From: a virus
DNA length: 45,267 bases
Reading direction: 5' to 3' (one strand)
Virus record (IMG/VR): IMGVR_UViG_3300006810_006621
Coordinates: 1-45,267 of that record
Part shown: positions 1-45,267 of the stretch, in pieces
How the letters are laid out: each line of letters begins with the position of its first letter
Position numbering within the stretch: the stretch's first letter is position 1
Notes under the pieces: model-generated
What the model saw: only the letters and a program-made list of their open reading frames with translations
Databases searched by the model: none
Told to the model about the DNA's origin: nothing
Position numbers and translations under genes: made by a program

Positions 1-950
1 TCTGGTAAAACAGGATAGTCAGTTATAAGTAAGTCTGCATTAAGATCATTCTGATAAGACTTCCTGAAATGATTTATATCAATCCCTCTATATAATGGAG
101 AATGATCATTTAATCTCCAGATTAATTTAGAGTAATCGAATAGAAACTCATCACATACCTCATCAAATTGTACTAGATTAGGTAGCTCCCCATTAACTGT
201 AGCTCCTCTGCTCTTTAGATTGCCTATTGAAGGAGTTCCTCTATGTCTGGCATATGAGTATAGATTAGCCATGATATATTGCATATCATCTATCTCATTA
301 GTCCTATTGACTATAATTGCCTGATTGGTTAAGTATGCTGCTATCAACCTTTCATCTTCATCGAAGTTTTCAAATCCTCTGGCATATGTAACATGCATTG
401 CAAAGAAACAAGATACTGACTTCCAGAATGATATATAATCCTCATCCTCAAAGTTTAGATTCCTTCCCTCTCCTCTGGTTAGGGACTTGGAAACTATACC
501 CGGCTTATACATCTTATTCAGTACATTTATACACCACTTCTTCACATCCTCATCACAGCAACCATCAAAGAAATAAGAGAATATAGATCCTTGGAAGTAT
601 GATCCTCCTGCTACACAATCTGAAGTTGTAGTATAGTTTAATTTTAGCCATTGAAATTCTAGATTGCCAGTATCATCAGATCCAGCTCTAGTATACCTGA
701 ACTGAGCTTGGAAGTCATGTGTTGCAGCTATTGGTATGGCTGCTAATGCCACATCAGATAGATCTTCCCAAACTGTCCAATTTATAGCATCCAGAGTGTA
801 CCTAAATTCCTTATCAAAAAATCTAGTTCCAGTTTCACCTACAAGTCCATCATTGAATGTTGAAATAGCAGTTATCCCATTGAGAGGATAATCCATGGTG
901 AAAATGACATTATCATTTATCTCTGTTAGTATGTTACCTGTTACTGCCAT
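1..950 (-). CDS. baseplate-distal structural protein, cut by window edge
   Basis: An open frame starts at an ATG (950-948) one base after the stop-side boundary of the preceding gene and runs without a stop to the left edge, giving at least 316 residues. The first ~120 residues look beta-rich (FTMDYPLNGITAIS, FQAQFRYTRAG); the following part is Cys-containing and more helical (FFDGCCDEDVKKWC, then NVLNKMYKPG). I do not recognise the family. It is the last gene of the baseplate/adhesin run, right after an Ig/PKD-rich protein, so a tail or baseplate structural role is inferred from position only. The C-terminus lies outside the window. Codon use matches its neighbours. Confidence 0.75.
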   Translation of the reverse strand, partial: MAVTGNILTEINDNVIFTMDYPLNGITAISTFNDGLVGETGTRFFDKEFRYTLDAINWTVWEDLSDVALAAIPIAATHDFQAQFRYTRAGSDDTGNLEFQWLKLNYTTTSDCVAGGSYFQGSIFSYFFDGCCDEDVKKWCINVLNKMYKPGIVSKSLTRGEGRNLNFEDEDYISFWKSVSCFFAMHVTYARGFENFDEDERLIAAYLTNQAIIVNRTNEIDDMQYIMANLYSYARHRGTPSIGNLKSRGATVNGELPNLVQFDEVCDEFLFDYSKLIWRLNDHSPLYRGIDINHFRKSYQNDLNADLLITDYPVLP

Positions 951-951
951 A

Positions 952-2571
952 TTATGGTGTTGTTATACTATGCTTTGTAGTTATTACAGAAGGATCAATT
1001 ATTGTTGATGATGCTGCTACTGCTATTGATGTCGATAGATAGAAATCATAGGTACTCCCTGATGGAGGTACTGTCCCAAATACTTCATTTTGAAATGTAA
1101 ATTCACCTGATCCATCTAGTGTTACTTGTATTGTTGTAGTTGAAATACCGGGAGATAATAATGTCTCCACACTAGCATGTCCATTTAATACATCTGCTGA
1201 TGCTTTAGCAACCCCTCCTCCTTTTGATAGATTAAACTGCAGATCTACTAATTCACCTGCTAATCCACCTCTAACTGCTAGATTATATAGCATATCATCT
1301 CCTGATGCCACTTCACTAACTGTTTCTAAATATACTCCTGTACTAGAGACTGTAATTGTAGTGGAATCAGATGAACTAACCCCATCAGTAATTACAATAA
1401 GTTCAAATACATAATCCCCATCAGTAGCTCCTGCTGGGAACTCTATTGTTGGAGTTAATGTACTACCATTTATTATTGTTGGAAATACTATTGCTCCTGA
1501 TGGTGATGCTGTTAAATGCCAAAAATATTCTATATCAACCACACCTGCTGCTGGAGTAGCTGTGCCTGTAAGTCCTACTGAGACTCCTGTTGTAGAGTTC
1601 ACTGTTCCAGATCCTGTAAGTCCTGCATCTACAGTAGGTGCATCTACTGGAGCTTCAGAGCTAGTCACTGTTATTGTAGTTCCTTGAGTATCTATTAATC
1701 CATCATTATCTGTTACCTTTAATTGAACTGGGAATATTCCTATTTGATTTATATTTCTTACTTCACAAGTTGCTGCTGTTGGTGTAGATAATGATAATAA
1801 TCCAACTCCTGCAGGGAATGACCAAAGGTACGCTGTAATGGATCCATCTGAATCAGTAGATCCTGATCCTGATAATAGAACTCCTGTTCTTTTGGCCCAC
1901 ATACTGAAAGTAGTTCCTGCTGCTAGTGTTGGTTCCCACCCTCCTCCAAATGTCAATATCAACTTATTTGTGCCAGTATCCCAGCTAACAATAGTTCCTA
2001 CTTTTGCAGGATCTCCAGTGTTATTATCTTGAACCCACACTTTTGTTAAATCACTATCATATGTATCAAAATATGTTGCATCTAGTGAATAAATTAATGC
2101 ATCAGACAATGTTTCTGTTATAACAAAAGTAAACTGATCTGTAATTGTTTCCACTACTACATCTGCATCTAACTGAACTCTATTTGCTAGTATTTTACCA
2201 ATATTTATAGTACCACCACCAGTTATATTTGCTACTGGAGGAACTAATGCAGCTGCATTGACTGTCACTGTTACTGTATCTGTGGCTGTCTGCCCATCAT
2301 CATCCATTACAGTTGCTTTAAATACATATACTGTATTCTCTGATAAATTTTCTACTACTGTGGATGCTGCATTTGGACTTACTATGTTTATCCCAGTATC
2401 AACTCCTACTAACTGCCAATTGTGAGATACTATAACTCCATCAGCATCTGATGCAATCATTGTCAACACTATTGAATCTTGTGGAGGATCCACTGTTACA
2501 TTTGGCCCTGCATCCACTACTGGACTAACTAAGGTCTTTGCTGTTATCTGTATTGTTAATGTATTGCTCAT
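952..2571 (-). CDS. PKD/Ig-like repeat adhesin-type tail protein
   Basis: 539 residues of repeated beta-sandwich domains. PKD-type signatures are visible near residues 20-105 (DAGPNVTVDPP, DADG, DDDGQTATDTVTVTV), again around 230-305 (GSGSTDSDGSITAYLWSFP, VTDNDG) and around 315-410 (DAGLTGSG, SSDSTTITVS). The C-terminal ~120 residues differ and may be a cap or binding domain. PKD domains usually mediate extracellular protein or glycan contacts. Position after the baseplate genes suggests a fibre-like, host-contacting virion protein. There is no signal peptide, as expected for a virion component. The start lies two bases after the previous stop. Very rich in Thr, Val, Ser and Asp. Confidence 0.7.
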   Translation of the reverse strand: MSNTLTIQITAKTLVSPVVDAGPNVTVDPPQDSIVLTMIASDADGVIVSHNWQLVGVDTGINIVSPNAASTVVENLSENTVYVFKATVMDDDGQTATDTVTVTVNAAALVPPVANITGGGTINIGKILANRVQLDADVVVETITDQFTFVITETLSDALIYSLDATYFDTYDSDLTKVWVQDNNTGDPAKVGTIVSWDTGTNKLILTFGGGWEPTLAAGTTFSMWAKRTGVLLSGSGSTDSDGSITAYLWSFPAGVGLLSLSTPTAATCEVRNINQIGIFPVQLKVTDNDGLIDTQGTTITVTSSEAPVDAPTVDAGLTGSGTVNSTTGVSVGLTGTATPAAGVVDIEYFWHLTASPSGAIVFPTIINGSTLTPTIEFPAGATDGDYVFELIVITDGVSSSDSTTITVSSTGVYLETVSEVASGDDMLYNLAVRGGLAGELVDLQFNLSKGGGVAKASADVLNGHASVETLLSPGISTTTIQVTLDGSGEFTFQNEVFGTVPPSGSTYDFYLSTSIAVAASSTIIDPSVITTKHSITTP

Positions 2572-2573
2572 AA

Positions 2574-4549: not shown

Positions 4550-4550
4550 C

Positions 4551-8025: not shown

Positions 8026-11000
8026 CGAATTGTTTATTTTGTAAAAAGAAGTTTAATACATCTTGATTCACAGTGATATCTGCCTTATAGTCAAATTTAT
8101 CATCTGCACTTCCTTGACCTACTATATCATACACTCCTTTAGTCAATTTAGGGATATCTACAATATTGAAGTAAGATACATCAACTTGAGTTGAATTCCC
8201 ATCTTCACCTATAATATCTGTTATCCTGCCACCAATATATTTAGCCTTCATTCCTCTCTCAGCCTGCACTGTTGTAGTTCTATCTATTGTCTCCATACCA
8301 ATGCTGATATCCTGACTTACCTGAGTCACATAAAACACCTCATCTGTAGGTCTGAAATAGATGTAATTACCCACTTTAATTCTTCTATCTCCATTCATTG
8401 TGATAGTTCCCTCTCTAGTGAATGGTAGGTGTATATTTGTCTCAACTAAGAAGGCCAGCTCCTGAGATGCCTGCTCTGCAAATAGATCTATGTTATCTTC
8501 AGTATTTTTATCACTGAAGAATTTATAATTTGAGTAGTTGGATACTGCTGACAATCTTCTGTTACCTATCACCTGTGCCAGTCCATCAAAATACAATGCT
8601 GGAACATGGCCTAATGTCTGATTGGCTCCTGCAAAATTACCTCTTTGCTCTACTTGATACCATGCATACCCCTTTGATGACATCCTGAGTGTATCTGAGA
8701 TCACATCATCTTCATTGATATTGATGATCTTTGGATACTTAGAAGATGTCACTGTCACCTCATCCAATTCATTCACTGCACCTCCACCAAATACTGTAGG
8801 TTTTTCTGAATTACTTTCACCTGATTCTTGTGCTCTCTTCTGCTCTTTCTCTCTCAACTTTTCTCTATACCTATTTAGAGTTTCTCCTTCTGCTCCACCT
8901 GAATTGGAAGATTGCTCTCCTATGAATGGCTGAAAATCTTCATCTACATCACTAGGTAGTTCTTTATATGCTTCAAATACTGCCTCCTGTGTGAATGGAG
9001 GTTTTCTTGCTATCATCCAGAATCTATCTCCATATGTATCTGTGAAGAATTCTACAAATGGATCTTGACATACCTTCAGTATGAGATCAAATATAGATCC
9101 ATCTGGATTTGATATTGAATCATCTACCACTCTTAGATCTGTAATGGATGAATCGATAAATGCACTCATGATCTGCCAGATGCCTTTTACTTCTGATTTT
9201 ATAGTCTCCCTACCCTCTTCTCCCCACTTTGATCGATATGTTATAGTAGTCTTATCCTCAAATGCATTAAATACATCATCAGGAACATATCCAATGGTAG
9301 CTATCCTACTAAATATAAATTCTAAACTATCCTTTATTGATCTGGCTGTTATGGCTGATATCTCTTGGAATTGACCTCCCATATACCTCCCATTTTTAAA
9401 TGGCTGATCTCCATAAATTGAAGATGCATGTCCTATTGAAAATGGATTGAAGTAAGCATTATCATCCTCCAATACTGACATGAGGCTTTTACCTCTCACT
9501 GCCACTGAGATCTCATTTGTGGATCCTGTAGAGCTCACAGCTACATGATCAACTAATCCTATCATATCATACCACTTACCATCTATGTCATCATCAATAG
9601 CTCCATCTATTTTAAGTTTTTCATATGAGATAAATACAAGATCATTCTTACCTATAATCCTCTGGTAGTAAGGAATGTTTCTTTTGAATTCTGAGGCTAC
9701 ATCTCCCTGCTCTGAGAATGCAATTTCCTTATTGACATTTGACATCAATACATCATCATCTCCAGAGGTTACAATTAACTTCTCTACAGATGCAGATTTA
9801 TTATCAACCTCATCCTTTGCTAACTCATACCCAACTCCACTTAGATCAATGCTAAAATCACCTCCAGTCTTTATATGATTTGAGATGCTACATAGTCCAA
9901 TATCCTTAGTGATATCTATAAACCCTATTGAATCCTCTGATCTCTCTAAGTACTTAGCTCTACTCCACAGAAATACTCTTACCTGTGGCCTGATATCTTT
10001 TGCTGTGACTCCTCTGTTCTTGTATGCTGGCACAAAACCCGGATCGACTGTCAACTCCCTCAATATTTGAGGAAAGTATTCATTTACATTAACCTTAGTA
10101 GATGTAAGATTGCTCTCATATTTATCTCTAATGTTTATTTTAGAAACTTCTATAATAATAACAACTCCTTCACTTAATGGGTATGCTACCCCACTAGCAT
10201 AACTGTCATCATCACCATTATTATATCTCTTCTCCTCAATAGTCAGAGCCTCATATGCCCTCTTATTATTACTCTTACCTTTATACTCAAAATCTTTCAA
10301 GTCATCAGATGTCATGTCATAGGCTATAAACGTAGCATCTAGAACTAAATCTGAGAATGTTTGATGTCCACTATTTTTAGGAAGTGTATATTTTATGACT
10401 TTAACACCACTATCTTCAATCCCTTCTTGATGCCTTTTAGTTGCATCATTAGCTACCTCCTCCTCATCATCTTCAATTGGATCTTCACACTCTGGCATTT
10501 CACCCTTAGTCCATAATGCATATCTGTAAGATCCAAAAGTCTGAGCTCTACTCTCACCATCACCATCACCTCTGGTATCAATATGAATAAACCATTTAGC
10601 TCCCTTGCCATATAAACCAAATCCTCCAGCTCCTGCATCTAATAATGTTGTAAGTAATGTATCTTGATTCCTAATTGCACATGCTATTACCTTCCATGCC
10701 TCTTTTGGTTGAGGCCCTATGAATGCAAAGTCCATGGCTATCCCTTTCACATGAACACCTGATGCTCCTGTATGAGAGATCTCTAAGTTGTATGCTGGAG
10801 TTCTCTTTGTGGATGTAACCACTAGAGTATTACCTGCACCTATTTCATCATCTACATAATCCTGTATGATCTGAGCTATCTTAGGTAATCTAGCATCTAT
10901 AGAGTGAGTATCTGGAACTTTATTGGCAGAGTTAGCCTTCTTCCCATGAAAATTCTCTTCATGGAATCTGGTAGGAGATATTAAATCCCTTACATCCTTA

Positions 11001-13571: not shown

Positions 13572-14060
13572 TTACCCTCCCACTCCTGAAATTAGGATTG
13601 GTGTCTTGTATGTGAAATCTTGATTCCTTCCAGCTACCTGCCCTTCAGAAAGATCGATTGACTCTCTCTCCATGAATGCACCTTTAACTGTCAAGTGCTC
13701 AACCCACTTCCCAACTCTAAGGCCATTAGGATCCACTGAATCCTCAATCCTTTTAAGAAGTACTATGTCCACACCTTTATTGTCTAAAACAATATTGTCT
13801 ATGAATTCTCTGATGGAGTCTGTTCTTCTGTTGGTAGCACCCGGGATTCCTGATTCATCATAAGATATCTCATAAAATCCTGCTGTACAAGTTCCACTCC
13901 ACTGAGTCATTGGTAGCTCTTGAGGTGTTGCCTCTCCAAGACCATAAACAGTCACCCTTCTAAAAGTCTCTGTAACTGTTATATTCTTCATCCTACCTAC
14001 CACGTTTCCATTAACCTTGATTAATGCTATGGGTGCTGTTAATGATAATGATTCTGCCAT
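13572..14060 (-). CDS. tail tube protein
   Basis: 162 residues, the usual size for a myovirus tube subunit. It is beta-rich: IALIKVNGNVVGRMKNITVTE, RVTVYGLGEATPQELP, then WSGTCTAGFYEI and a long helix-containing loop IREFIDN. The pattern 'G.v.g.mk.i.v.e....r..v.g.g...p......g.~G' is typical of XkdM/T4 gp19-like tubes. It is encoded directly after the sheath, as expected, so its product would stack as hexamers inside the sheath. Start 20 bases after the sheath stop. Confidence 0.8.
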   Translation of the reverse strand: MAESLSLTAPIALIKVNGNVVGRMKNITVTETFRRVTVYGLGEATPQELPMTQWSGTCTAGFYEISYDESGIPGATNRRTDSIREFIDNIVLDNKGVDIVLLKRIEDSVDPNGLRVGKWVEHLTVKGAFMERESIDLSEGQVAGRNQDFTYKTPILISGVGG

Positions 14061-14079: not shown

Positions 14080-15723
14080 TTAGCTCAATCCTGATGTGTC
14101 ATCCAGAATTCTAGCTGTTAAGAAAATCTTATTAACTTCATAATTTGGATTTATTCCAAACTGGATTTTATATGCATCAGAGTCTATCTCTACAGTTACA
14201 TCACTGGAACTGATGATCAAGTTATCTACTGTATTAGTAGCTTCAACATCCTTCAGGTAGTTAACTACCCAAACTCTGACAGTTTCACTGTCTATTGTGT
14301 TTCTATTAGGGCCTGAAACTTGATTTCCAAGTAGGTCTAATATAGCTTGTTTCTTCATTCCAGCCAATAGCTCTCTCATGATTCTCACAAGTGAGATCTG
14401 GTGAGTACTTCCATCAGAATTAACAACAAATGTGTTAAGCTGAACTGTATTGACTCCTTGAACAATTGAAAAGAATTCTAGCTCAGGAGCATATTTCGTC
14501 ATCAAAACTCCTGCATCTAATCCAATAGAAACTTCCTGATCTGTTAATGAATGAGCCTCCCCTGATATTGAAATACCTTTGAATGTTGGAGGTGTCTGAG
14601 GATCTAATCCTGCTAAACGACCTGTTACCAGTGCTGCTTTGTACAGTGCATCTTTTAGTCTTAGTGGGTTTACAAGATCACCCGGATTGCTTACATAGCA
14701 CCCACCATGAACCACAACCACATTCTGAGAGTTATGTGCTGTTGCTGCTGCTACTGATTGAGATGCAAAAGTTCCACTTGTTGCTCCACCACCAATTACA
14801 TACATTGCTGGATCATTCATCTCAGTATCTAAGTAAGCTGCAATCTTATTAGGATCTACTGAAGTAGCATTACCTGCTTGATCTTCCATTAAGATGAAAT
14901 TAATATTCACATCTTTAATTGCTGTAAGTGCAGCAGTGACTTGAGCTGTATCATACGCTGATGTACCACCTGAGAATAAGTTATTACCTAAAAGAGTAGT
15001 TAAATCTCCTGCTACAATAGCTCCTGTGAATGCTGCTCCTGTTACAATTGTGAAATTGTTGACAAAATCAATATCGTTAACTGCCCAAAGTAGCATACCT
15101 TCCACTGTATCTTCCTCACTAGATTGAGCAATTAATGTTGGACTAGTATCTACCTCTGCTATATTGTTGTATGAATTGCCATTACTGTCATTACCTACAA
15201 ATGAGCCTCTCCAGAACTTCATTATGAATTTAGCTGGATCATTTACACCAGCTGTTAAAGTAATTGCATACCCTTTGGTTAAAAGATCTGTTGCTCCTTC
15301 TACACCATTTCCTGAAATACCTTCATTCAATAGTCCAAATTCTAATGTAGGATTTGATGCTATTGCTAGGACTGCAGTTGCAGCCACTGTTGTTAATGCT
15401 CTTGTATACACAATATTAGATGCTCCATTTATTTTAGATCCAAAAGGTCTAAATAATGGAACTGCCATATCATACCATTGACCACCACCAATCCACTTCT
15501 GGAATTGAGTGATACTGGTGAATGTGTAAAATGAATCTTTCCCTGTTGTTGCTTCTCCAGCAATCCCTGCTCCATTTCCATGAACTGAGAGAGGATCTTT
15601 GTCAATAATTAGTACAGTACCACTGTCTAATTCTAATCTAGGATTGTTAACTCCACTTTCTACAGTACCGAATACTCCGGGTTTGTCAACCTTCTTTCCT
15701 CCAAATATAAAACTAGTAGCCAT
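14080..15723 (-). CDS. contractile tail sheath protein
   Basis: 547 residues. N-terminus MATSFIFGGKKVDKPGVFG is sheath-like (the 'kPGvy' handle segment). The C-terminal third carries the conserved sheath core: FVVNSDGSTHQISLVRIMRELL, TVRVWVVNYLKDVEA, then DAYKIQFGINPNYEVNKIFL. The central ~300 residues form inserted beta domains. Together with the downstream tube gene this establishes a contractile tail. CpG content is higher than in most neighbours though lower than in the capsid gene (e.g. a CGT Arg codon near 14617), consistent with high expression. An AT run (15737-15752) precedes the ATG; no Shine-Dalgarno. Confidence 0.85.
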   Translation of the reverse strand: MATSFIFGGKKVDKPGVFGTVESGVNNPRLELDSGTVLIIDKDPLSVHGNGAGIAGEATTGKDSFYTFTSITQFQKWIGGGQWYDMAVPLFRPFGSKINGASNIVYTRALTTVAATAVLAIASNPTLEFGLLNEGISGNGVEGATDLLTKGYAITLTAGVNDPAKFIMKFWRGSFVGNDSNGNSYNNIAEVDTSPTLIAQSSEEDTVEGMLLWAVNDIDFVNNFTIVTGAAFTGAIVAGDLTTLLGNNLFSGGTSAYDTAQVTAALTAIKDVNINFILMEDQAGNATSVDPNKIAAYLDTEMNDPAMYVIGGGATSGTFASQSVAAATAHNSQNVVVVHGGCYVSNPGDLVNPLRLKDALYKAALVTGRLAGLDPQTPPTFKGISISGEAHSLTDQEVSIGLDAGVLMTKYAPELEFFSIVQGVNTVQLNTFVVNSDGSTHQISLVRIMRELLAGMKKQAILDLLGNQVSGPNRNTIDSETVRVWVVNYLKDVEATNTVDNLIISSSDVTVEIDSDAYKIQFGINPNYEVNKIFLTARILDDTSGLS

Positions 15724-16824: not shown

Positions 16825-17567
16825 TATAAACTACTTAAAAAATCATCTATTACTAATTTCATTTTATCTCCCATATCAAAGTTATCCCATGCTTTTTGAG
16901 CTAGATTCTTCTCAGAGAATCCCGGGTGAATAAATGCATCTGGATCACTATTAACACTCACCCTTCTAAAATTTACATAACCTCCAGTTGTTTTCTGCAT
17001 CCCTTCATAAATTGAAGTCCTCTTATTCTTTGGAAGGCTAGATACATCTGTTATTCTTTTTCTTAATGCCTGAGACTTTGGTATATGATACTGCTCTGGT
17101 ATCTGACCTAATTTTAATTGCCTTCCAGCTAATGCCTTAGTAGTCTCATGGATCACTGTTGGCATTACACTTGCAAAGGCCTGACTCTCTCCCAGTGATG
17201 TTGATACTCCAAATCTAAATGGAATTGTCAGCATTGGATCTCCAGACTTGGTATACTTCACCTTATTAGACTGCAGGAATCCTATCTTCATATCAAATGA
17301 ATCAGCTCCCATCTCAATAGCATTGGCTATCCACTCTACAGGATCTAGATAGGCCACTCCTGTAAATCTACCCCTACTTTCAGTCTGGATAGCTCTCTTG
17401 TACATCTCCCTAGTGGATCCTAGGTGCTGATTAGCCTGATTCTCCCACTCCCTTGCATACTCCTGTGTAATAGTTGTTACAGCCAGCTCTCTCAAGTCAT
17501 CTACTTGAGATGCTGCTAAACTGAACTCTTCAGCTAAGGCTCTGGTATCTATTGTTACAGGTATCAT
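16824..17567 (-). CDS. neck / head-tail completion-like protein
   Basis: 247 residues. N-terminal helices (RALAEEFSLAASQVDDLRELA, ITQEYAREWENQANQHL) lead into a mixed region (GVAYLDPVEWIANAIEMGADSFDM) and a basic C-terminal half (SQALRKRITDVSSL, GGYVNFRRVSVNSDPDAFIHPG). This resembles HK97 gp10/Mu gpG-type neck proteins in layout, with helical start and basic beta C-terminus. It follows the connector genes and precedes the tail terminator candidate. Assignment is from order and general style. Confidence 0.5.
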   Translation of the reverse strand: MIPVTIDTRALAEEFSLAASQVDDLRELAVTTITQEYAREWENQANQHLGSTREMYKRAIQTESRGRFTGVAYLDPVEWIANAIEMGADSFDMKIGFLQSNKVKYTKSGDPMLTIPFRFGVSTSLGESQAFASVMPTVIHETTKALAGRQLKLGQIPEQYHIPKSQALRKRITDVSSLPKNKRTSIYEGMQKTTGGYVNFRRVSVNSDPDAFIHPGFSEKNLAQKAWDNFDMGDKMKLVIDDFLSSL

Positions 17568-30900: not shown

Positions 30901-31504
30901 TTAGATCACCAACTGGCACATTCTTAGATAGTCCCTGCTTAGAAGTCTCATCACCCTCTCTTACCCATACAGTAGTTTGATGTACTTTACCATTTCTAGT
31001 AACCCACACTCTCTTTTGGACTAATCCGGGTTTGAATCCCTTCTCAATACCTAGTGCCTCAAATGCTGTACCTTTATCCATTGACTTGCTTATATTTTTA
31101 TCTCCTGCATTTCTATAAAGTCTATCTATAGCCTCCTGCTTATTATACCCCAAAAAGGAATTATGCCCATATGTATGTGTACTTTTCACAGCCTCTCCCC
31201 AGAACCCTTTACTATCCTTCTTCACCTCTATCCACTCAGACTCTCCATCTGTTTCTAACCTTTGGATATATTTATCTTTACCCTTGATGCTTATCCCATA
31301 TACAGGCATTTCCATATCTGGCCTGTCCACTATGGTAGCTTTACCTTCAGTAAGAAGTTTCTTTTTAGATGCACTTTTCTTCTCTGGAACCCAGCCTTTA
31401 GCTGTTTTAACTACAGGAGAGCCTCCATGAGTTCTTTTGGTTCCTATTGGAAGTGCCTTCCCTCCCTTTAATATATTAAATGCATCATTCTCATCCATTA
31501 CCAA
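27998..31504 (-). CDS. large internal virion (polyvalent-type) protein with zincin domain
   Basis: 1168 residues. Begins with the module KGGKALPIGTKRTHGG plus KTAKGWVPEKK (residues 13-43) shared with two neighbours. A segment LVQKRVWVTRNGKVHQTTVWV (~160-180) is of a kind found near MuF-type proteins. A GDTYANKTTFQTIKKEVG...GKLKGWVFP segment follows, then long charged coiled coils (~480-650). Near the C-terminus, FGHEVAHFLDD gives a HExxH zinc site (His1037, Glu1038, His1041), with Glu1087 in STKECFARALEQY as likely third ligand. It probably enters the host with the DNA or acts in head maturation. Overlaps the upstream gene by seven bases. Confidence 0.72.
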   Translation of the reverse strand: MVMDENDAFNILKGGKALPIGTKRTHGGSPVVKTAKGWVPEKKSASKKKLLTEGKATIVDRPDMEMPVYGISIKGKDKYIQRLETDGESEWIEVKKDSKGFWGEAVKSTHTYGHNSFLGYNKQEAIDRLYRNAGDKNISKSMDKGTAFEALGIEKGFKPGLVQKRVWVTRNGKVHQTTVWVREGDETSKQGLSKNVPVGDLIAEDVAGMNVERYSDKAVLITGDTYANKTTFQTIKKEVGVGSFNGKLKGWVFPVKFLSQVLGGIASLQKDPDKADEIISQKNALPVGTSVDVGGEKGKISEVIPDKNGARYNVKTAEGDLNGVDEKVMDVPAETNNKKISEILNNTNESNRVPSRKQLFGIKPIENLHNYSLSEYMSMHGIDQAEIDTAIASINKEPKSTGSTSSGGSSSGKPTVSTEGLTKKQLIRKLVYAHYQAVSKAVNNGEKMKDSVLSTYPDLKDSYNKKRQAMSEETKRKISEALKKNKPEETPEAKKKREREEAAKKLGMAGATKESIDKQLKELQAQKKAREEANANRKAEDKKQAETMAAAKKAAEETIANLSEEEINDFKQAFKTVKGKMAKKEQSKLAAMIKERDEYQSKIDRLSNLERESKDFSKRSEYSSNRMENRMKTRKLDLQIIHQKNAALATANGGTIIEVTDAIGTKHDHVPDFSGIDTADNILYDEKTILDMERPNFIPDIDTDAFRRKGFIFDSIRVGPNKYMIAANGYSEESMPDKAGYGQKKGEYDPKEIGYVALTLDQLVLTQNWYETMEKGQMIADRDRKNKRSLDHWEGLPESTRQRYMDQKNLYHSIPAKVKKQITKEQWDAMPWKEREKLYKPIKKHGLKRLKAKFDDRHMASSFHSMYERFVDPNAKRKTKKGEILRRGQHSYGTSYAHADAWSSWSNYREMLDWKINDISIRREEVSEIRTKALETSYGKSGRDDMLKKDSGIMIKRQNGSKIQPAQVEQLKSAWGDVQGSFGTLKELANKNDLTISHAGTTYMYAKTAIGVYYPSFKAIGVTNKLGDDQLNFTFGHEVAHFLDDATGEGSNYASDNFESTAGQLAIAFRRGMNAKSNSKYTNSTKECFARALEQYHAHNTRGGGAIRGGDKDGVPYVSAPNYASAKTFNDEIKPLVEKFLSENKHIIKSLKWGDNLDIQQSFTILLG
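31376..31468 (-). repeat. KGGKALPIGTKR module, copy in 1168-aa gene
   Basis: Encodes residues 13-43 of the 1168-residue protein. The DNA and peptide closely resemble segments at 32788-32919 and 33522-33656. Core shared peptide: KGGKALPIGTKR, HGG, KTAKGWVPEKK. Confidence 0.8.
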
Positions 31505-32940: not shown

Positions 32941-35165
32941 GGCTTTTTTATTAAATCATCAAATTTACCAAATCTACCTATATAAGAAACAACTGACTTT
33001 TGTGTTTCATGAGATGCTCTAGCAGCAAAGGTAGTTACATTTTTTCTGGTGAATGTCTGCATATTATTTTTAGCCTTAAATTCCTCAGTTCCATTTGGAG
33101 TAGCTAAATCTATGACTCTATACCCTGTATAAGTATCCCCATTTTTTGAAACAATCTTAACAGCACCTGAAAATCCATTAGTCATATCAACTAAGGCTAC
33201 AACTCCTCCTACTTTTAAGGAATTCAGATTGTTGATTATACTATCTTGCCTATCTCTCTTATTAGCTAATGATATACCTTTTAAATTAGATCCAATATTG
33301 ACTCCAACTGTAGGACTCTTATCTTTTACCCCAATATTTTTACCACTCTTATCTTTTATAAATCTACCCTCCATAGCATCTATTTTAGACTGAGCATTTT
33401 TATGTTCTGTAGATCCATGCTTCATCCTATTTCTAGATTCCTTCATCTTATTTATATCCTTAGTATGAGCTAATACACCTGCTGCCTCTGGAGTTTTTTC
33501 ACCTTGACGTTTACCTGAGTATTTCTTCTCTGGCACCCATCCCTTAGCTGTCTTTTCAACTGGTACTCCACCATGCATCCTCTTGGTTCCAATTGGAAGA
33601 GCTTTACCACCTTTGATGATCATATTGATCTCAGCTTGGTTATGTAGTTCTGCTACTTCAAGAGCCTTCTTTAGATCATTATTACCATCTAACATTGCAT
33701 GTATGGCCTTAGTGCTATTTGGGAGTTTCTTACCAGTGATACTTTCATAAATATCCTTAGTGAATTTCTGATCATATCTTAATCTAGACTTCAGGTAAGG
33801 TAGATCATTCTTCTTGATAGCCTCTGCCATCTTATCAAAACTTTGCTTAGATAGTGCCTTCTGGCCACCTCTAACAATTTCTTCTACCTTTTCTTTTGTG
33901 TATTGCTTGGCACCTTCATCACCTTTACCCATAGCTCTCTCCCAGTTACCAATTTGAGTCTTAACTAGATCATTAGTCCCAAAGTAATCTTTCTTATCAT
34001 ACTTATCAAAGATAGCATTAAATTTAGCCTCTGGAGAATCTTTTGGAGTATCTTTCTGGTGCTGCTCTACAGCATCTCTAATACCCATGGAGATATCCTC
34101 TTCCATAATCTTCACTACAGCATCTTTGTTATCCATGAAATATTTAACCTGCTCTTCAGAAGGTTTCATGTCATTCATTGCATCAAGAGATCTTTGTTTC
34201 TTTGATATCATGCCATCAGTAACACTCTTATGGCCACTCTCTGCTAATGCTGCTTTGGCCTCCTCTGTGGTATGCTTATGCCCTACTGGATTCTTACCAA
34301 ACATCTCCTCATATGTTTTCTGGCTCTTACCATACTTAGCTGCTGATTTCTTTTTTTCAGCTGCTTTCCTATGATTAAACAGCTCCTTTGATGTATCATT
34401 TACCTCCTTTACAGTTTTTGGATCTGCCTTCCCTGTAGATGCTACATCTTTCTTATGTTTAGCCATTGCATTATCATGAGCTTCCTTTTTAGCATCTCCT
34501 TCAAGATCATTCAATACCTTTTTTAAACTAGATAAGTGCTGTTCATCTCTAGCATTGGTGACATTGCCCTGCTTCTTAATTCTATCTTCAAATATTTTTA
34601 TTGCCTCCTTTATTTTATCCACATCCATCTTACCATCATCCTTCTTAGCTGGTTCCTTCTTAGCTGATTCCTTCTTCTCTAGTTCCTCCTTCTCTGGATC
34701 AGGCTTACCACCTAAATCATCAAATGATGCACCTTCTTTTGATGCATCCTCATGAGAGGCCTTAACCATTTTATTCACCACATCTTGAGGTACCATATGC
34801 TGTGCTGCTGGCTCTAATGATTGGAATATCTCATATGCTTTTTTGGGATCTGCCTCCATGATCTCCTTCATGTGAGTAAGTTGAGCTAAATCATGCTTAC
34901 TTGCTGGCTCTACCTGCCCACCTTTACCTCCTGCTGGAGCTGCTGCTGTTGGAGTTGGAGCACCTTCTTTACCTGCACCCTTCTTACCAGATGAAACTTC
35001 CTTCCATTCACCTGCAGTTTTCTTATACTTCTTACCATTTTTGTAAGTATGTATTGTTCCCTCTGGAGCTCCACCCGGGAAGTGAGTCCCACCAGTGGCA
35101 CCTTTAAGGATCTCTGCTCCTATACCTAATCTATTATTCTGAATAGCATCTATTACTTGTTTCAT
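32937..35165 (-). CDS. large Lys-rich internal virion-type protein with two module copies
   Basis: 742 residues. N-terminal ILKGATGGTHFPGGAPEGT and KKYKKTAGEWKEVSSGKK (21-62) is a degenerate version of the shared module; a well-conserved copy lies at 518-548 after VAELHNQAEINMIIKGG. Between them are charged helices and an Ala/Lys/Glu-rich linker (~155-180). The C-terminal ~190 residues include a beta region (GGVVALVDMTNGFSGAVKIV). The arrangement suggests a fusion of two ancestral module-led genes. Start overlaps the upstream 60-aa gene (ATGA) and end overlaps the 480-aa gene (ATGA). Role inferred as internal head or ejected protein. Confidence 0.65.
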   Translation of the reverse strand: MKQVIDAIQNNRLGIGAEILKGATGGTHFPGGAPEGTIHTYKNGKKYKKTAGEWKEVSSGKKGAGKEGAPTPTAAAPAGGKGGQVEPASKHDLAQLTHMKEIMEADPKKAYEIFQSLEPAAQHMVPQDVVNKMVKASHEDASKEGASFDDLGGKPDPEKEELEKKESAKKEPAKKDDGKMDVDKIKEAIKIFEDRIKKQGNVTNARDEQHLSSLKKVLNDLEGDAKKEAHDNAMAKHKKDVASTGKADPKTVKEVNDTSKELFNHRKAAEKKKSAAKYGKSQKTYEEMFGKNPVGHKHTTEEAKAALAESGHKSVTDGMISKKQRSLDAMNDMKPSEEQVKYFMDNKDAVVKIMEEDISMGIRDAVEQHQKDTPKDSPEAKFNAIFDKYDKKDYFGTNDLVKTQIGNWERAMGKGDEGAKQYTKEKVEEIVRGGQKALSKQSFDKMAEAIKKNDLPYLKSRLRYDQKFTKDIYESITGKKLPNSTKAIHAMLDGNNDLKKALEVAELHNQAEINMIIKGGKALPIGTKRMHGGVPVEKTAKGWVPEKKYSGKRQGEKTPEAAGVLAHTKDINKMKESRNRMKHGSTEHKNAQSKIDAMEGRFIKDKSGKNIGVKDKSPTVGVNIGSNLKGISLANKRDRQDSIINNLNSLKVGGVVALVDMTNGFSGAVKIVSKNGDTYTGYRVIDLATPNGTEEFKAKNNMQTFTRKNVTTFAARASHETQKSVVSYIGRFGKFDDLIKKP
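33522..33656 (-). repeat. AELHN-KGGKALPIGTKR module, internal copy in 742-aa gene
   Basis: Encodes residues 504-548 of the 742-residue protein. It aligns without gaps to the copy at 32788-32919 over the AELHN...WVPEKK span, which argues for an internal gene duplication or fusion. Confidence 0.8.
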
Positions 35166-35857: not shown

Positions 35858-36161
35858 CTTTCTTCTTTTTTACATGTGTTTTCCACTTATTATAGTCTGA
35901 AATTGATTTATTTACTATAGAATCAGCTCTATGGCTGGCCTCAGTGTATAACCTATAAATTGAATCACCTCTTTTGCTTATAGAATCCATTTCATGCATC
36001 CAAATCTCTCTCTGATTAGCATGCTCCTTCAATAGATCCTTTGTTGGATCAGGGCCAAAGAATATAGCAATTCCAAACCCTATCACAAGTGACAGAATCA
36101 TGGTTATAAGAGTGCTCTTATTGTTACCTACAAATACTTTTATGCCTTCTTTATTCATCAT
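35784..36161 (-). CDS. N-terminally anchored coiled-coil protein (i-spanin candidate)
   Basis: 125 residues. One membrane helix near residues 16-36 (STLITMILSLVIGFGIAIFF) is followed by a periplasm-type helical region (DLLKEHANQREIWMHEMDSI, RADSIVNKSISDYNKWK) and a Lys-rich stretch. This is the layout of an inner-membrane spanin. It overlaps the portal gene end by 11 bases and contains the start of the next envelope protein gene. Assignment rests on topology and overlap, not on homology. Confidence 0.6.
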   Translation of the reverse strand: MMNKEGIKVFVGNNKSTLITMILSLVIGFGIAIFFGPDPTKDLLKEHANQREIWMHEMDSISKRGDSIYRLYTEASHRADSIVNKSISDYNKWKTHVKKKKDEEINAINTDPSEYLRVLSARGSN

Positions 36162-37944
36162 CTAGAGCTAATTTATTAAATAATTGCATAGCATCCTTCA
36201 TCATTGGATTACCTTGATACTTCTGTAAGGTAGTTTCTAGAGCTTTCTGGAACCCTTCTTCATCTGGAGCACCTTCATCACCATCTCCACCATCATCCAC
36301 TCCTATATCATCCCATTCAGCAGCTGCATCTGTAGACTCTTCCTGCTGGCCTGCCATAGCATCACCTTGGTTCTTAGATAGCCATATTTGATTCATGATC
36401 ATATCATCATCATCAATCTTATCTGCAAGTCCTCTCTTTCTTCTGACTTCTTTAAGTCCCATGAATGAACCTGCTGCTTTAATGTCCTTATCTAGTTCCT
36501 TATCTTCTGACTCTATATCCAATCCTACAAATCTGAATCTGAAAGTTGAATCTATCTGCCAGATGATCCATTTGTTGATCCAGCTTTCAATAGCCTTCAA
36601 TAATGGATACAACCCTTTATCTCTGGAGAATTTCATCTTAGCTTCAGTCTCCTGTCCTGAGCTGCTATTTATACCTCCACCTTTATTGAATTCTATTCCA
36701 ATTTCCTCTGGAGCTATTTTATATAATGCACAAATGATCTTGATCAGGTATTCCTGCCACTCATTAAACTGCATATCTGCATTGTTCTTATGTAGATCTA
36801 TCCACTCAACACCTTCACCCTCTAATACAGGTATCTTGTGAGCATTCTTTGTGCCTACAACCATAGATCTCCACTCCTGCCTTAGCTCTGCTATCCTGTT
36901 TCTATTAAGTCCCTTAGATACCTTTAAAATACCTTTTGGATTTGAACCTTGAGTAAAAAACTTACCATTATACTGATCAGTATTTAACTGCCATGTAATG
37001 ATATTTATAAGATCTTCTAATTCTGACTTACCATATCCATTCTGGTAGATATCTGTTCTGGCATTTCTGACACCATACATAATCTCCCATGGATAGTAGT
37101 CACTTACTATCTTACCATCTACTACCTGCACATGAGAAGGATAATATCCCTTTATCTCTTTTGGCTTGGCTCCAGTTCTAGCTTCATAGTTACCAGACTT
37201 ATCTATATGAGCTTGATAAATAGTTCCTGCATCAACTGCAAAGTATCTTGAAGGATCTCCTCCTCTATTAGGCACTATTTCAGCTGTAGCTGCATCCAAT
37301 GTAAGGGAATCCTCAACTATCTTTCTTAGAAAAACAGTAAATGTGTCTGACCCCCATAAAGTTTCACCTTCTTTCTTATCCCCTCCATTGAGAAGGAAAT
37401 TAGTTAAATATTTGACCTGCTTCTTATCCTTTAGTGACATCTTAGGCTCTTCATCTGTATAGAAGTCAGTTGGCTTCTTCTCAATGACAAACCCCATATC
37501 ATACTTCCCCTTTCTAGGAGATGAAAAATTTTCTATTTGTGATTGTCTTGTTGTTATTATAGCTCTAACCACTGTAGTAGAACCCATCTTTCTAAGGAAT
37601 CCGGGTGACAGTTGAGCTCTCTTAGTCTTAAATCCATGCTGAGAATACTGATTCAGATATGGATCTGACATAATAGTAACCCCACCCTCCTTATTCCTAG
37701 CATCTTCATCTAAGATCTCCTCTAGGAATGACTGAGCTTTAATAAGTGTTTTAGGATCATTTGATGACAATGCCTTCTCTAAGAGCATGTTTTTCTCTAC
37801 CTCTAGCAGCTGCTTCTCCAGACCTATTTCTTCAAGTCTGTCTGTTGGCTCAACTGTTGAAGTACTCTCATAATTTCGGTCAAGTGGTTGCACCTGCACC
37901 CCATCTCCAGTGGAGCTGGTAATATAGTTATAAGTGTACTGCAT
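36151..37944 (-). CDS. portal protein
   Basis: 597 residues with portal-type layout: an N-terminal wing region, LSPGFLRKMGSTTVVRAIITTRQSQIENF, DTFTVFLRKIVEDSLTLDAATAEIV, YPWEIMYGVRNARTDIYQNGYGKSELED, then the stem helix region (QLNTDQYNGKFF) and ALYKIAPEEIGIEF. A long acidic C-terminus (DDIGVDDGGDGDEGAPDEEG) ends the protein. Family resemblance is to SPP1/HK97-type phage portals (PF04860 group). It forms the dodecameric DNA gate at one capsid vertex. It is only 0-11 bases from neighbours. No terminase is visible nearby within the window. Confidence 0.85.
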   Translation of the reverse strand: MQYTYNYITSSTGDGVQVQPLDRNYESTSTVEPTDRLEEIGLEKQLLEVEKNMLLEKALSSNDPKTLIKAQSFLEEILDEDARNKEGGVTIMSDPYLNQYSQHGFKTKRAQLSPGFLRKMGSTTVVRAIITTRQSQIENFSSPRKGKYDMGFVIEKKPTDFYTDEEPKMSLKDKKQVKYLTNFLLNGGDKKEGETLWGSDTFTVFLRKIVEDSLTLDAATAEIVPNRGGDPSRYFAVDAGTIYQAHIDKSGNYEARTGAKPKEIKGYYPSHVQVVDGKIVSDYYPWEIMYGVRNARTDIYQNGYGKSELEDLINIITWQLNTDQYNGKFFTQGSNPKGILKVSKGLNRNRIAELRQEWRSMVVGTKNAHKIPVLEGEGVEWIDLHKNNADMQFNEWQEYLIKIICALYKIAPEEIGIEFNKGGGINSSSGQETEAKMKFSRDKGLYPLLKAIESWINKWIIWQIDSTFRFRFVGLDIESEDKELDKDIKAAGSFMGLKEVRRKRGLADKIDDDDMIMNQIWLSKNQGDAMAGQQEESTDAAAEWDDIGVDDGGDGDEGAPDEEGFQKALETTLQKYQGNPMMKDAMQLFNKLALDDE

Positions 37945-41183: not shown

Positions 41184-41186
41184 ATA

Positions 41187-42221
41187 TTACCAAGTTGCAA
41201 ATGTTAGTGAGGCTCTTGTCCAAACATTATCTGCATCACATTTATAAACAAAATCTCCTACCACTCTCCTTTCTCCTGCTTTACCAGAGGCAGTAGCACT
41301 AGCTGGAGCAACTGATCCTCCAAAGAACCCGTCTATCTCTTTTACCTGCCCACCAGCATCAACACCTAATGATCTAGTTGTTACTCCAATGGTAGTAGCA
41401 TCTTGATCAGCATGTGCAAATCCTTGTACATAAGTTCCTGTACCATAATTGGATAATTCAAATCCTTTATCAAAAGAACTATAATAAGGAGTAAACCATG
41501 CCCTAGCAAGTCCTCCCCCGGGTGTTCCTGATACTCGAATCTCTACTGAGGGTTCTGTATCAAATCTAGAATTTGTAAGTGTCTTAGTTGCCTGTTGTAC
41601 ATAAGCATATCCATCCCCAGTACGACTATTGGCTATTCTAGTTACCCAATCTGTACTTACATCTAAATCATCAGGAAATACAGAGAAACTAGCTAATTGT
41701 GCTGGTACTAATGATTGTATTCCAACTCCTACAGACATTTTACCTGCCGCTCCACTGGCTGCACTTACATCTCCATTATAAAGGAATGACCTATATCCAG
41801 CTTGACCACCTACCCCAAACCAGTCAAATAAATTTGCCTCTATATTATCAGCAGGCACTCCTAATTCACTTAATACATTTTGTCCACCGAATTGAACTCT
41901 AGATATTGCTCCTGATGTCCAAGTGTAATCAAATTTTACACCTCCAGTTGCTCCAACTTGAGTTCCTACTATATCCAATTGCTCTTCTGGAGTAGCCTCA
42001 CCTAGTCCTAATTTAGCTGTTCTGTAGGCATCTACTGTTATGTCTGTATTTGGCAATCCTGTACCTACATCAGCTAATGGAGAATCTGTTCCATCTTCTT
42101 TGATAAGTAGATTGAGTAGTTTATCTAAGATCTCTACTGCCTTATTTTGCACAGGCTCATTACCCGGATTGTTTGCTGCCTTAACTAGTAGTGCTAAAAA
42201 TTGTTCTGTATTTGTTGCCAT
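41187..42221 (-). CDS. fibre-like virion protein
   Basis: 344 residues. Helical N-terminal module (NTEQFLALLVKAANNPGNEP, KAVEILDKLLNLL) related in pattern to proteins at 43087 and 26200. Residues ~65-90 (AYRTAKLGLGEATPEEQLDI) look like the short repeat that precedes fibre tips. The rest is beta-rich (SVGVGIQSLVPAQLASFSV, PSVEIRVSGTPGGGLA) and ends FVYKCDADNVWTRASL, a common fibre-tip ending. Precedes the esterase gene. A host-binding role is inferred. Confidence 0.62.
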   Translation of the reverse strand: MATNTEQFLALLVKAANNPGNEPVQNKAVEILDKLLNLLIKEDGTDSPLADVGTGLPNTDITVDAYRTAKLGLGEATPEEQLDIVGTQVGATGGVKFDYTWTSGAISRVQFGGQNVLSELGVPADNIEANLFDWFGVGGQAGYRSFLYNGDVSAASGAAGKMSVGVGIQSLVPAQLASFSVFPDDLDVSTDWVTRIANSRTGDGYAYVQQATKTLTNSRFDTEPSVEIRVSGTPGGGLARAWFTPYYSSFDKGFELSNYGTGTYVQGFAHADQDATTIGVTTRSLGVDAGGQVKEIDGFFGGSVAPASATASGKAGERRVVGDFVYKCDADNVWTRASLTFATW

Positions 42222-42230
42222 CTTATATAC

Positions 42231-42252
42231 TATTAATTGTAATCATCAATTG
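42231..42252. repeat. 22-bp direct repeat, copy 2 (vestigial gene end)
   Basis: Identical over 22 bases to 43103-43124. Here it lies in the 71-base gap after the stop of the 264-residue gene. Read in that gene's frame past its stop, the gap ends LKLMFTIDDYN then a stop, matching the end of the 192-residue protein (LQLLFSIDDYN). Confidence 0.8.
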
Positions 42253-42292
42253 TGAACATTAGTTTTAATGCCCTTCTGATCTACTTTTACCA

Positions 42293-43087: not shown

Positions 43088-43102
43088 GTCTTGTTTATTA
43101 AT

Positions 43103-43124
43103 TATTAATTGTAATCATCAATTG
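43103..43124. repeat. 22-bp direct repeat, copy 1
   Basis: Spans the end of the 192-residue gene (codons for IDDYN and stop) and its first downstream bases. Identical to 42231-42252, about 870 bases away. Confidence 0.8.
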
Positions 43125-43683
43125 AGAATAGTAACTGTAGTGTCCAGTCTCCATCTCCTAATGTTGCATCTCCTGTATTGGCTTTCAACATCACCCTATC
43201 ATTAAATGACATAGGATCTCCAGTTGCTCCTGACTTATCTATTCTTCTTAAATAGTCTGCTGCATCATTTGGTGCTGCTAATACTACAATTGTCTGTCCT
43301 AGAGTCTCATAATAAACTTCCATATCAGCTGGGAAGTTAAAATTAACTCCATTATGAACTAATCTTTCAGATCCTGCAATGAATCTGTATGTTTTAAGTG
43401 ATCCGGGTGCTGGAGCTATCTCCTGTGGAGTAGTATTCAATGCTTTTGCTTCTGCTGGAGTTAGTGGTAGTATAAACTTCTCAATAACTGTATTTGATGC
43501 TGCTGCAACTGCTGTCCATTTCGTACTAACATCAGTGGCAAATGTTCCTGATGTGTGAGCTGTATTACATAAATATATTGCTCCTGTTTGGGTTATACAA
43601 TCACCTACTTGATAAGCTACTCCTGTTACCCATGCTGTAAGTTGAATTGCTGTTTTTGATATGACTCTTCCTTTGAACTCCAT
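43105..43683 (-). CDS. fibre-like protein with CBM5/12-like segment
   Basis: 192 residues. Residues ~15-60 (TAWVTGVAYQVGDCITQTG, AIYLCNTAHTSGTF, TKWTAV) have the aromatic and Gly spacing of CBM5/12 chitin-binding-type modules, similar to a segment in the 572-residue fibre at 17647-19365. The remainder is beta-rich and ends WTLQLLFSIDDYN. It lies in the fibre cluster one base after the upstream stop. Glycan binding is inferred. Confidence 0.6.
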   Translation of the reverse strand: MEFKGRVISKTAIQLTAWVTGVAYQVGDCITQTGAIYLCNTAHTSGTFATDVSTKWTAVAAASNTVIEKFILPLTPAEAKALNTTPQEIAPAPGSLKTYRFIAGSERLVHNGVNFNFPADMEVYYETLGQTIVVLAAPNDAADYLRRIDKSGATGDPMSFNDRVMLKANTGDATLGDGDWTLQLLFSIDDYN

Positions 43684-43684
43684 G

Positions 43685-44548: not shown

Positions 44549-44790
44549 TAGTTATTATTAAATTGCATGTTCTTATATGGATCAAAATAGAACCTGTCTA
44601 TCTGAGATCCTGATCCTGCTAAATTACCACTAGCATCTAGTACTGCAGTAAATTGTGCTGAAGGATCTGTAATGTCTAGATTGCCATAAGCATCTATAGT
44701 GAAGGTCACTAGTGTAGTAACTCCAGATGCTGTCAGAGCTTCTTCTGCACAGATCTCCTTCTTTATATCACAAAGGCTCCTGCAGTTCAT
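44548..44790 (-). CDS. small Cys-containing virion-like protein
   Basis: 80 residues: MNCRSLCDIKKEICAEEAL, then beta-rich TLVTFTIDAYGNLDITDPS and FYFDPYKNMQFNNN. Three Cys in the first 15 residues could bind metal or form disulfides. It is preceded by a one-base gap and coupled to the fibre gene by TAATG. Unknown function, perhaps a fibre accessory. Confidence 0.6.
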   Translation of the reverse strand: MNCRSLCDIKKEICAEEALTASGVTTLVTFTIDAYGNLDITDPSAQFTAVLDASGNLAGSGSQIDRFYFDPYKNMQFNNN

Positions 44791-44791
44791 C

Positions 44792-45175
44792 TTAGTGAGG
44801 TTTACCTGTTACTACGATTACTACCTTACCTACTGATCCCCAAGTTATAGCTGATAGATCCATCTTGAAGTATCTTGCTAAGTGTTGTGGTACAACTTGC
44901 ATTGCTGTACTATTTGCAACCATTGCAAGACTAAAAGCAGTGCTATAAGCTATCCCTGCTGCTCCTTTAATCCCAGCTTCTGTTGCTGTAATTGTTCCAG
45001 AAGTTCCTGTTGCTCCAATATGCTGAACTGTAACTGCTATTGTTTTACAAGATAAGAAGTCAAACCATAAGTTCTGTCTGATTGATTCTCCTGCTCCTAA
45101 ATCTATATCTATTTTATATTCCCTTGAAGTTGGGCCTTGATAATCCTTAAAATCTTTGATCTTAGCTGATGCCAT
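44792..45175 (-). CDS. small beta-rich virion-like protein, unknown
   Basis: 127 residues, beta-rich after a short charged start (MASAKIKDFKDYQGPTSREY). Includes VTVQHIGATGTSGTITATEAG and ends VVIVVTGKPH. No family recognised. It is the first complete gene of the window; the 92 bases upstream contain AT-rich DNA including a 16-base stretch (45175-45190) identical to one upstream of the sheath gene, and no clear promoter. Possibly a fibre-adaptor or decoration protein. Confidence 0.6.
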   Translation of the reverse strand: MASAKIKDFKDYQGPTSREYKIDIDLGAGESIRQNLWFDFLSCKTIAVTVQHIGATGTSGTITATEAGIKGAAGIAYSTAFSLAMVANSTAMQVVPQHLARYFKMDLSAITWGSVGKVVIVVTGKPH

Positions 45176-45267
45176 AATATATATATTTGTCTCGACTCTT
45201 AAATTCCCTGTGAGTCATAAATTAAACTTAACTATCACTTAATATACTGATTTTTTCTTTAACAAGA

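What the first reader, a model, noticed from the sequence alone, without database searches (positions are those of the whole stretch)
1..45267. CCWGG appears absent; every Pro-Gly pair is written CCSGG
Reading both strands by eye I found no CCAGG or CCTGG in 45 kb. I found 18 CCSGG sites (e.g. 499, 1148, 10038, 13841, 16921, 20745, 25032, 31026, 37601, 43403). All 18 fall on Pro-Gly codon pairs, and I found no Pro-Gly pair written otherwise, although CCA and CCT dominate Pro elsewhere. With base composition favouring A/T at the centre, chance alone should give more W than S. This points to selection against a Dcm/EcoRII-type target (CCWGG), probably a host restriction system, strong enough to force a codon choice.
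Basis: partly seen in the sequence, partly recalled or inferred. Interest (0 to 1): 0.75.

Follow-up and report, generated by a model that had tools for sequence, protein, structure and literature searches.

The report
Phage genome purged of restriction sites
This virus of bacteria has erased every copy of the five-letter DNA word CCAGG/CCTGG from its genome, and all or all but one copy of at least six other words that look like targets of bacterial DNA-cutting defence enzymes; the strategy is known, but here it is unusually complete and forces otherwise shunned codons.

Summary
CCWGG is absent from the 45 kb window (48.8 expected from dinucleotide shuffles) and from the closed 105.6 kb genome of the same phage (145 expected from a Markov model; 72.5 from synonymous-codon shuffles). 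All 31 Pro-Gly pairs in the called genes are CCG or CCC, while 981 of 1001 other Pro codons are CCA or CCT. In the nearest long relative, which does not avoid CCWGG (69 sites, 76 expected), all 9 shared Pro-Gly pairs are CCW; here all 9 are CCS. The sites were therefore removed by synonymous recoding, not mutational decay.

CCWGG is one of at least seven words emptied in this lineage (0 or 1 copy left): GGWCC, GAAGAC, CTTAAG, GACAAC, CCTNAGG and GCTNAGC are the others. CCWGG avoidance needs at least 5 changes on a tree of related phages. Sampled Bacteroidota carry EcoRII-type (28 of 395) and MvaI/BcnI-type (38 of 395) domains. Best explanation: escape from several host Type II restriction systems, a known strategy. 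The host was not found. A separate oddity is CpG at 0.08 of expectation.

The parts
1..45267 (.). Stretch with no CCAGG or CCTGG on either strand; also no GAAGAC, CTTAAG, GACAAC, CCTNAGG or GCTNAGC, and one GGWCC
499..503 (-). CCSGG on a Pro-Gly pair (gene running off the left edge)
1148..1152 (-). CCSGG on Pro-Gly
10038..10042 (-). CCSGG on Pro-Gly
13840..13845 (-). CCCGGG (two overlapping CCSGG) on Pro-Gly
14681..14685 (-). CCSGG on Pro-Gly (tail sheath protein 14080-15723)
   Evidence: sheath name
15677..15681 (-). CCSGG on Pro-Gly (tail sheath protein)
16921..16926 (-). CCCGGG on Pro-Gly
18152..18156 (-). CCSGG on Pro-Gly
20745..20749 (-). CCSGG on Pro-Gly
22439..22443 (-). CCSGG on Pro-Gly (major head protein)
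   Evidence: name
23530..23534 (-). CCSGG on Pro-Gly
25032..25036 (-). CCSGG on Pro-Gly
31026..31030 (-). CCSGG on Pro-Gly
35074..35079 (-). CCCGGG on Pro-Gly
37601..37605 (-). CCSGG on Pro-Gly (portal protein 36151-37944)
   Evidence: name
41517..41522 (-). CCCGGG on Pro-Gly
42163..42167 (-). CCSGG on Pro-Gly
43403..43407 (-). CCSGG on Pro-Gly
36151..37944 (-). Portal protein used to find relatives (41% identical to Chryseobacterium phage MA9V-3)
21724..23250 (-). Major head protein used for the tree on which CCWGG loss was mapped

Best explanation
The window is part of a 105.6 kb tailed dsDNA phage whose nearest named relatives infect Bacteroidota. Its lineage has been under long and severe selection by Type II restriction enzymes of its hosts. 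A genome copy carrying CCWGG, or one of at least six other recognition words, is cut on entry, so lineages survive only after the sites are removed, where residues are conserved by synonymous codon changes. Pro-Gly must then be written CCG/CCC-GGN, although the genome otherwise shuns both those codons and CpG. Shown: the absence, its strength, its specificity to exact words, its absence from a relative whose shared proteins are 37% identical on average, and the synonymous route at shared residues. Inferred: that the agent is a restriction enzyme, that it belongs to the host, and which enzyme it is. A single-site MvaI-type enzyme fits a strict zero somewhat better than the multi-site EcoRII type, because the latter should spare DNA with few sites.
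For: CCWGG 0/145 by strand-specific Markov and 0 against 72.5 (sd 5.5) by synonymous shuffle over the whole genome. Pro-Gly 31 of 31 CCS against 20 of 1001 other prolines, Fisher p 4e-46; the other two reading frames also give 0, with 4.0 and 5.2 (frame B) and 32.8 (frame C) expected. All 12 CCWGG sites of the nearest long relative that lie at identical residues are recoded here, and 9 of 9 shared Pro-Gly pairs are CCW there and CCS here. Exact-word specificity: CCTNAGG and GCTNAGC are 0 while the other 14 XCTNAGY words are present, CCTNAGC 46 times. The relative strongly avoids none of the seven. CCWGG avoidance recurs: 6 of 49 scorable loci, at least 5 changes on the tree. EcoRII-C domains in 28 of 395 Bacteroidota genomes (15 of the 28 cover the whole domain); in 10 of 10 extended loci a C5-methylase-motif gene lies within about one gene; the one nuclease tested matches only EcoRII among solved structures. 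MvaI/BcnI family in 38 of 395; the two tested are nearer MvaI than BcnI.
Against: The host is unknown: no tRNA genes, and only low-complexity or short weak matches in 395 genomes of the class for one 20 kb piece. No matching enzyme was linked to this phage. GACAAC matches no recognition site that I can recall, and Rusinov et al. (abstract) find avoidance almost only for orthodox Type II sites, so the two non-palindromic words (GAAGAC, GACAAC) fit less neatly. The phage carries a glucosyltransferase-like gene (TAGT; phrog_842), which might be expected to protect DNA in another way.
Confidence: 0.88

Rival explanations
1. Mutational decay: cytosines of CCWGG are methylated by a Dcm-type enzyme in the host and deaminate, so the word decays without selection.
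For: Dcm-like methylases occur in Bacteroidota; TG/CA is somewhat raised in this genome. Pro-Gly pairs are fewer than residue shuffles predict (31 against 75; 0.45 of expectation against 0.76 in 16 pooled relatives).
Against: Deamination cannot turn CCA-GGN into CCG-GGN, yet CCG is 22 of 31 before Gly and 3 of 1001 elsewhere. Shared Pro-Gly pairs are kept with the proline wobble base changed from W to S, 9 of 9. Pro-Gly survival against the relative (9 of 28) is no worse than that of P[STVED] (25 of 118). Six other words are emptied too.
Confidence: 0.03
2. The phage itself makes a nuclease that cuts host DNA at CCWGG and must therefore lack the site.
For: Would also give a strict zero. Many of its proteins match no known family.
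Against: No EcoRII-C match in the genome (the control genomes did not ring there, but the same family rang in 28 of 395 genomes). None of 40 scanned proteins, of 137 called genes, is a known restriction enzyme. Seven different words would need several such nucleases. No C5-methylase match.
Confidence: 0.05
3. A compositional or codon-usage artefact.
For: Low GC and strong strand asymmetry bias symmetric Markov models against palindromes (compare).
Against: Strand-specific Markov and synonymous shuffles still expect 145 and 72.5. The words GGWGG and CCWCC are at expectation. The 58 other portal loci of at least 9 kb (some near-duplicates) all have CCWGG, though a few are low, such as L070 2/13, L078 2/10 and L087 4/20.
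Confidence: 0.01

Closest known systems
Recognition-site elimination as a phage anti-restriction strategy (Rusinov et al. 2018, PMC6286503; outline with abstract and one passage seen)
   Same: Type II sites removed from a dsDNA phage genome. The abstract reports complete or almost complete elimination in about one-tenth of viral genomes.
   Different: At least seven words at once, one expected up to 145 times and found 0 times, two of the words non-palindromic. Host unknown, so the enzyme pairing used in that study cannot be made.
Sparse EcoRII sites of phage T7 (recalled; only the title of Kruger et al. 1988 on refractory EcoRII sites was seen, in a reference list)
   Same: CCWGG scarce in a phage.
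   Different: T7 keeps a few sites (recalled) that the multi-site EcoRII cannot cut; here the count is zero in 105.6 kb.
Chryseobacterium phage MA9V-3 (PV245944) and IMG/VR record G400 (IMGVR_UViG_3300008255_000118)
   Same: Same phage group: portal 41% identical to MA9V-3, head protein 52% to G400. In MA9V-3 all annotated genes shown are on one strand.
   Different: Neither avoids CCWGG (66/65.5 in 100,000 of 103,203 bases; 69/76.3).
EcoRII/PspGI and MvaI restriction enzymes (CCWGG; passages of PMC4081073 seen)
   Same: They recognise exactly the missing word.
   Different: They are the presumed selecting agent; EcoRII-C is not found in this genome.

Membership tests
Restriction-site avoidance in a phage genome | Site count far below composition and codon expectation | tested here: met
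Restriction-site avoidance in a phage genome | Word is the recognition site of a known Type II enzyme, with near-miss words unaffected | tested here: met
   CCWGG is the site of EcoRII/PspGI (PMC4081073 passages); near misses. The matches of GGWCC, GAAGAC, CTTAAG, CCTNAGG and GCTNAGC to AvaII, BbsI, AflII, Bsu36I and BlpI are recalled, not looked up; GACAAC has no recalled enzyme.
Restriction-site avoidance in a phage genome | Specific to the lineage, gained or lost between relatives | tested here: met
Restriction-site avoidance in a phage genome | Host encodes an enzyme of that specificity | tested here: inconclusive
   Host unknown. EcoRII-C in 28 of 395 and MvaI_BcnI in 38 of 395 Bacteroidota genomes; the specificity of those enzymes was not tested.
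Restriction-site avoidance in a phage genome | Phage does not protect the site by its own cytosine methylase | tested here: met
   No C5-methylase family match in G001 (the family rings in 10 of 14 control genomes). Other methylase classes were not searched over the whole genome.
Restriction-site avoidance in a phage genome | Restriction of the phage depends on the presence of the sites | not testable with these tools
   needs cultivated host and phage

The most novel reading that the evidence does not exclude
The genome is a negative print of its host population's whole set of restriction enzymes: seven or more recognition words emptied together in one lineage, two of them non-palindromic. 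The extreme CpG shortage (0.08 of expectation, also 0.07 in a separate relative, G002) could be the trace of a further, CpG-directed defence in Bacteroidota that is not a classical site-specific enzyme.
Probability: 0.12. Interest if true: 0.75.

Novelty: new member of a known kind. Interest (0 to 1): 0.42.

Why it matters
An uncultivated phage carries a readable record of the cutters it has met. The seven emptied words predict the restriction set of its host population and could be used to find that host among sequenced or methylome-typed bacteria. The Pro-Gly codon switch is an unusually clean case of a presumed defence enzyme dictating codon choice against two other biases. The CpG shortage is unexplained and deserves its own study.

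Tried and rejected
Symmetric (both-strand) Markov models overstate the expectation for palindromes in this one-strand genome; one search gave false positives such as AAGN5CTT (14/88), so I repeated the scan strand by strand. I tested whether CpG depletion and CCWGG loss share a cause: they are separable, since G002 has CpG 0.07 with CCWGG 371/242 and G400 has CpG 0.197 with CCWGG 69/76, although over 47 loci the two are weakly correlated (Spearman 0.36, p 0.013). I tested whether the TAGT glycosyltransferase or a C5-methylase tracks CpG depletion: TAGT in 2 of 21 records (G001 and G416), C5-methylase in 1 of 21 (G405), neither tracking it. TG/CA is raised in G001 (1.22) and G002 (1.30) but not in L135/L136 (1.04; L136 is part of G400), and CC/GG rises with CpG loss more than TG/CA does, so there is no clear deamination trace.

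Host finding failed: no tRNAs, portal relatives in bacterial genomes in only 3 assemblies, no spacer-like match (one 20 kb piece of the 45 kb window, 395 genomes; 65 had matches, most in one low-complexity stretch, a few short weak ones elsewhere). The EcoRII-C loci are not CpG-poor (lowest 0.56). Literature searches for CCWGG avoidance, CpG-depleted Bacteroidetes phages, CpG methyltransferase in phages and Flavobacteria-phage site avoidance found no paper holding all terms, and the two metagenome numbers appear in no held paper. The library is open-access only.

Rows dropped: one search shows only loci of at least 9 kb (59 rows including the window phage, some near-duplicates). One search prints a selection of 71 loci of at least 9 kb. 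One of the 56 (L175) had stops and three fell to de-duplication, leaving 52, of which 49 were scorable. A sign of amino-acid-level loss (Pro-Gly 0.45 of shuffle expectation against 0.76 in relatives) is not supported by pairwise survival, so I do not claim it. The gene call is my own crude codon-score method.
Full report
What the window is. The window (45,267 bp) is a virus record. The same phage is held as a 105,777 bp record, G001 = IMGVR_UViG_3300022187_000017, whose ends overlap by 134 bp with one mismatch, so it closes into a circle of 105,643 bp. A crude codon-score gene call gives 137 genes, all on one strand, covering 93%. The portal protein is nearest to Chryseobacterium phage MA9V-3 (41%) and Bacteroides phages such as DAC19 (38-39%), with more distant matches to SPO1-like Bacillus phages. 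PHROGs names the head protein, tail sheath, portal, a baseplate wedge subunit and a head protease in the window, so it is a contractile-tailed phage. Pfam finds RecA, a DNA polymerase III alpha subunit, a terminase, a TET-associated glycosyltransferase, PAPS-reductase-like proteins and a weak deoxynucleotide kinase, and no restriction enzyme or C5-methylase among 40 proteins scanned, nearly all outside the window (whole-genome family searches).

The observation. CCWGG does not occur in the window. Shuffles predict 48.75, sd 6.14; maximal-order Markov predicts 56 and ranks CCWGG lowest of the palindromic words tested, with CCAGG/CCTGG lowest of the 5-mers. The closed genome has none either: 145 expected by strand-specific Markov, log10 p -63, and 72.5, sd 5.5, with synonymous codons shuffled within genes. 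In 12 shuffled genomes CCAGG/CCTGG is still the lowest word, because its neighbours keep the trace, but it reappears 58-85 times.

How the word was removed. Three codon frames can make CCWGG. Pro-Gly: 31 of 31 pairs have CCG (22) or CCC (9), against 17 CCC and 3 CCG among 1001 other prolines; Fisher p 4e-46. Ser/Pro/Thr/Ala before Trp: 0 of 61 use NCC (4.0 expected); the same residues before Arg: no NCC-AGG among 256 pairs (5.2 expected); NNC-CWG-G: 0 of 1019 contexts (32.8 expected). Against G400, the nearest long relative (38 gene pairs, mean identity 37%), the paired genes hold 41 counted CCWGG sites: 12 lie at identical residues and all 12 are written differently here, 24 have differing residues and 5 could not be aligned. 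The 9 Pro-Gly pairs shared by both are CCW in all 9 there and CCS in all 9 here. This is synonymous recoding under selection; deamination of methylated CCWGG cannot make CCSGG.

Not CCWGG alone. Observed against synonymous-shuffle means: GGWCC 1/43.8, GAAGAC 0/36.6, CTTAAG 0/20.4, GACAAC 1/19.6, CCTNAGG 0/16.1, GCTNAGC 0/12.3; weaker cases are GTGCAC 0/8.4 and CACN4GTG 0/6.5. Strand-specific Markov agrees. Specificity is sharp: of the 16 XCTNAGY words only CCTNAGG and GCTNAGC are zero (CCTNAGC 46, GCTNAGG 6); GGNCC has 1 with A/T and 29 with C/G at the centre. Gly-Pro pairs are GGG/GGC in 26 of 27. G400 strongly avoids none of the seven: CCWGG 69/76, GGWCC 28/32, GAAGAC 77/67, CTTAAG 44/43, GACAAC 24/36, CCTNAGG 4/7, GCTNAGC 8/6. 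From memory these words, except GACAAC, are sites of Type II enzymes (EcoRII, AvaII, BbsI, AflII, Bsu36I, BlpI).

Relatives. Of 59 portal loci of at least 9 kb only the window phage has zero CCWGG; a few others are low (L070 2/13, L078 2/10, L087 4/20, L068 8/25). Among 71 head-protein loci of at least 9 kb, zero with 8 or more expected occurs in L133 and L134 (the window phage), L151, L152, L153, L209 (head proteins match alike, probably one species), L172 and L212; L137, L178 and L184 have one each against 12, 27 and 23. On a head-protein tree of 52 loci, 6 of 49 scorable ones avoid CCWGG and at least 5 changes are needed. CCWGG and GGWCC avoidance go together (Spearman 0.51, p 3e-4, n 47, not corrected for kinship). 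Relatives often lack other words, such as GATC, CTAG, GGCC or CATG.

Candidate agents. EcoRII C-terminal domains occur in 28 of 395 Bacteroidota genomes sampled, 15 of them over the whole domain, the rest partial or weak. Ten of those loci were extended and all ten have, within about one gene, a protein with C5-methylase motifs; Pfam confirms all 5 of these methylases that I scanned, and the 4 scanned with NCBIfam match the Dcm subfamily profile PRK10458, below its cut-off. The one nuclease compared with solved structures matches EcoRII only. MvaI/BcnI-type domains occur in 38 of 395; of two tested, one matches MvaI better than BcnI and the other matches MvaI only. EcoRII needs more than one site (PMC4081073 passages), so a few leftover sites should be tolerated; a strict zero leans towards a single-site enzyme. 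This is inference.

Novelty. Recognition-site elimination is established: Rusinov et al. 2018 (PMC6286503, abstract) report complete or almost complete elimination in about one-tenth of viral genomes, mostly for orthodox Type II sites and more in non-temperate phages. The case here is a strong new member; its two non-palindromic words are less typical by that account. I saw no CCWGG-free Bacteroidota phage in the search listings (12 of 21 papers listed), in an open-access library only.

The CpG oddity. CpG is 289 against 3452 expected (0.084), in genes and, less strongly, between the called genes (39 against 177). 31 of the 289 CpGs sit in CCSGG words, so the ban on CCWGG overrides the CpG bias. 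CpG is 0.11-0.48 in the four-row clade that holds the window phage, 0.197 in G400 and 0.07 in G002, which has CCWGG in excess. The two traits are therefore separable. The cause of the CpG shortage is open.

Noticed in passing
whole genome G001; window 1-45267: CpG is depleted to 0.08 of expectation (289 of 3452); a relative G002 (L129-L132) has 0.07, and loci of the nearest relatives 0.19-0.48. To my recollection this is extreme for a phage.
   Followed up: partly
G001 core 56533-57366 (L006:16533-17366, minus strand): TET-associated glycosyltransferase (PF20691; phrog_842, glucosyl-HMC glucosyltransferase) without any C5-methylase match in the genome; found in 2 of 21 related records. May modify the phage DNA.
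   Followed up: partly
G001 core 49320-50108 and 50860-51756: Two PAPS-reductase-like proteins near each other, the second a weak match; role unknown.
   Followed up: no
whole genome G001: GATC is in excess (829 against 561 in synonymous shuffles) and GGCC too (174/110), the opposite of many relatives, which lack GATC.
   Followed up: no
whole genome G001: GGAAAA is scarce (12 against 36 by strand-specific Markov), not a restriction site known to me.
   Followed up: no
L012 (MT835500, 50,000 of 55,544 bases): A related phage contig from human faeces avoids a different set: CTAG 0/75, GAATTC 0/15, AAGCTT 0/13, CTGCAG 0/10, GGCC 7/49.
   Followed up: no
L129-L132 (G002): CpG-poor relative with CCWGG in excess (371/242) but CTAG 0/90, GGCC 0/68, GTATAC 0/12.
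   Followed up: no
window about 23,730-23,860: Low-complexity Glu/Val-rich coding stretch gives chance DNA matches across many genomes of the class.
   Followed up: no
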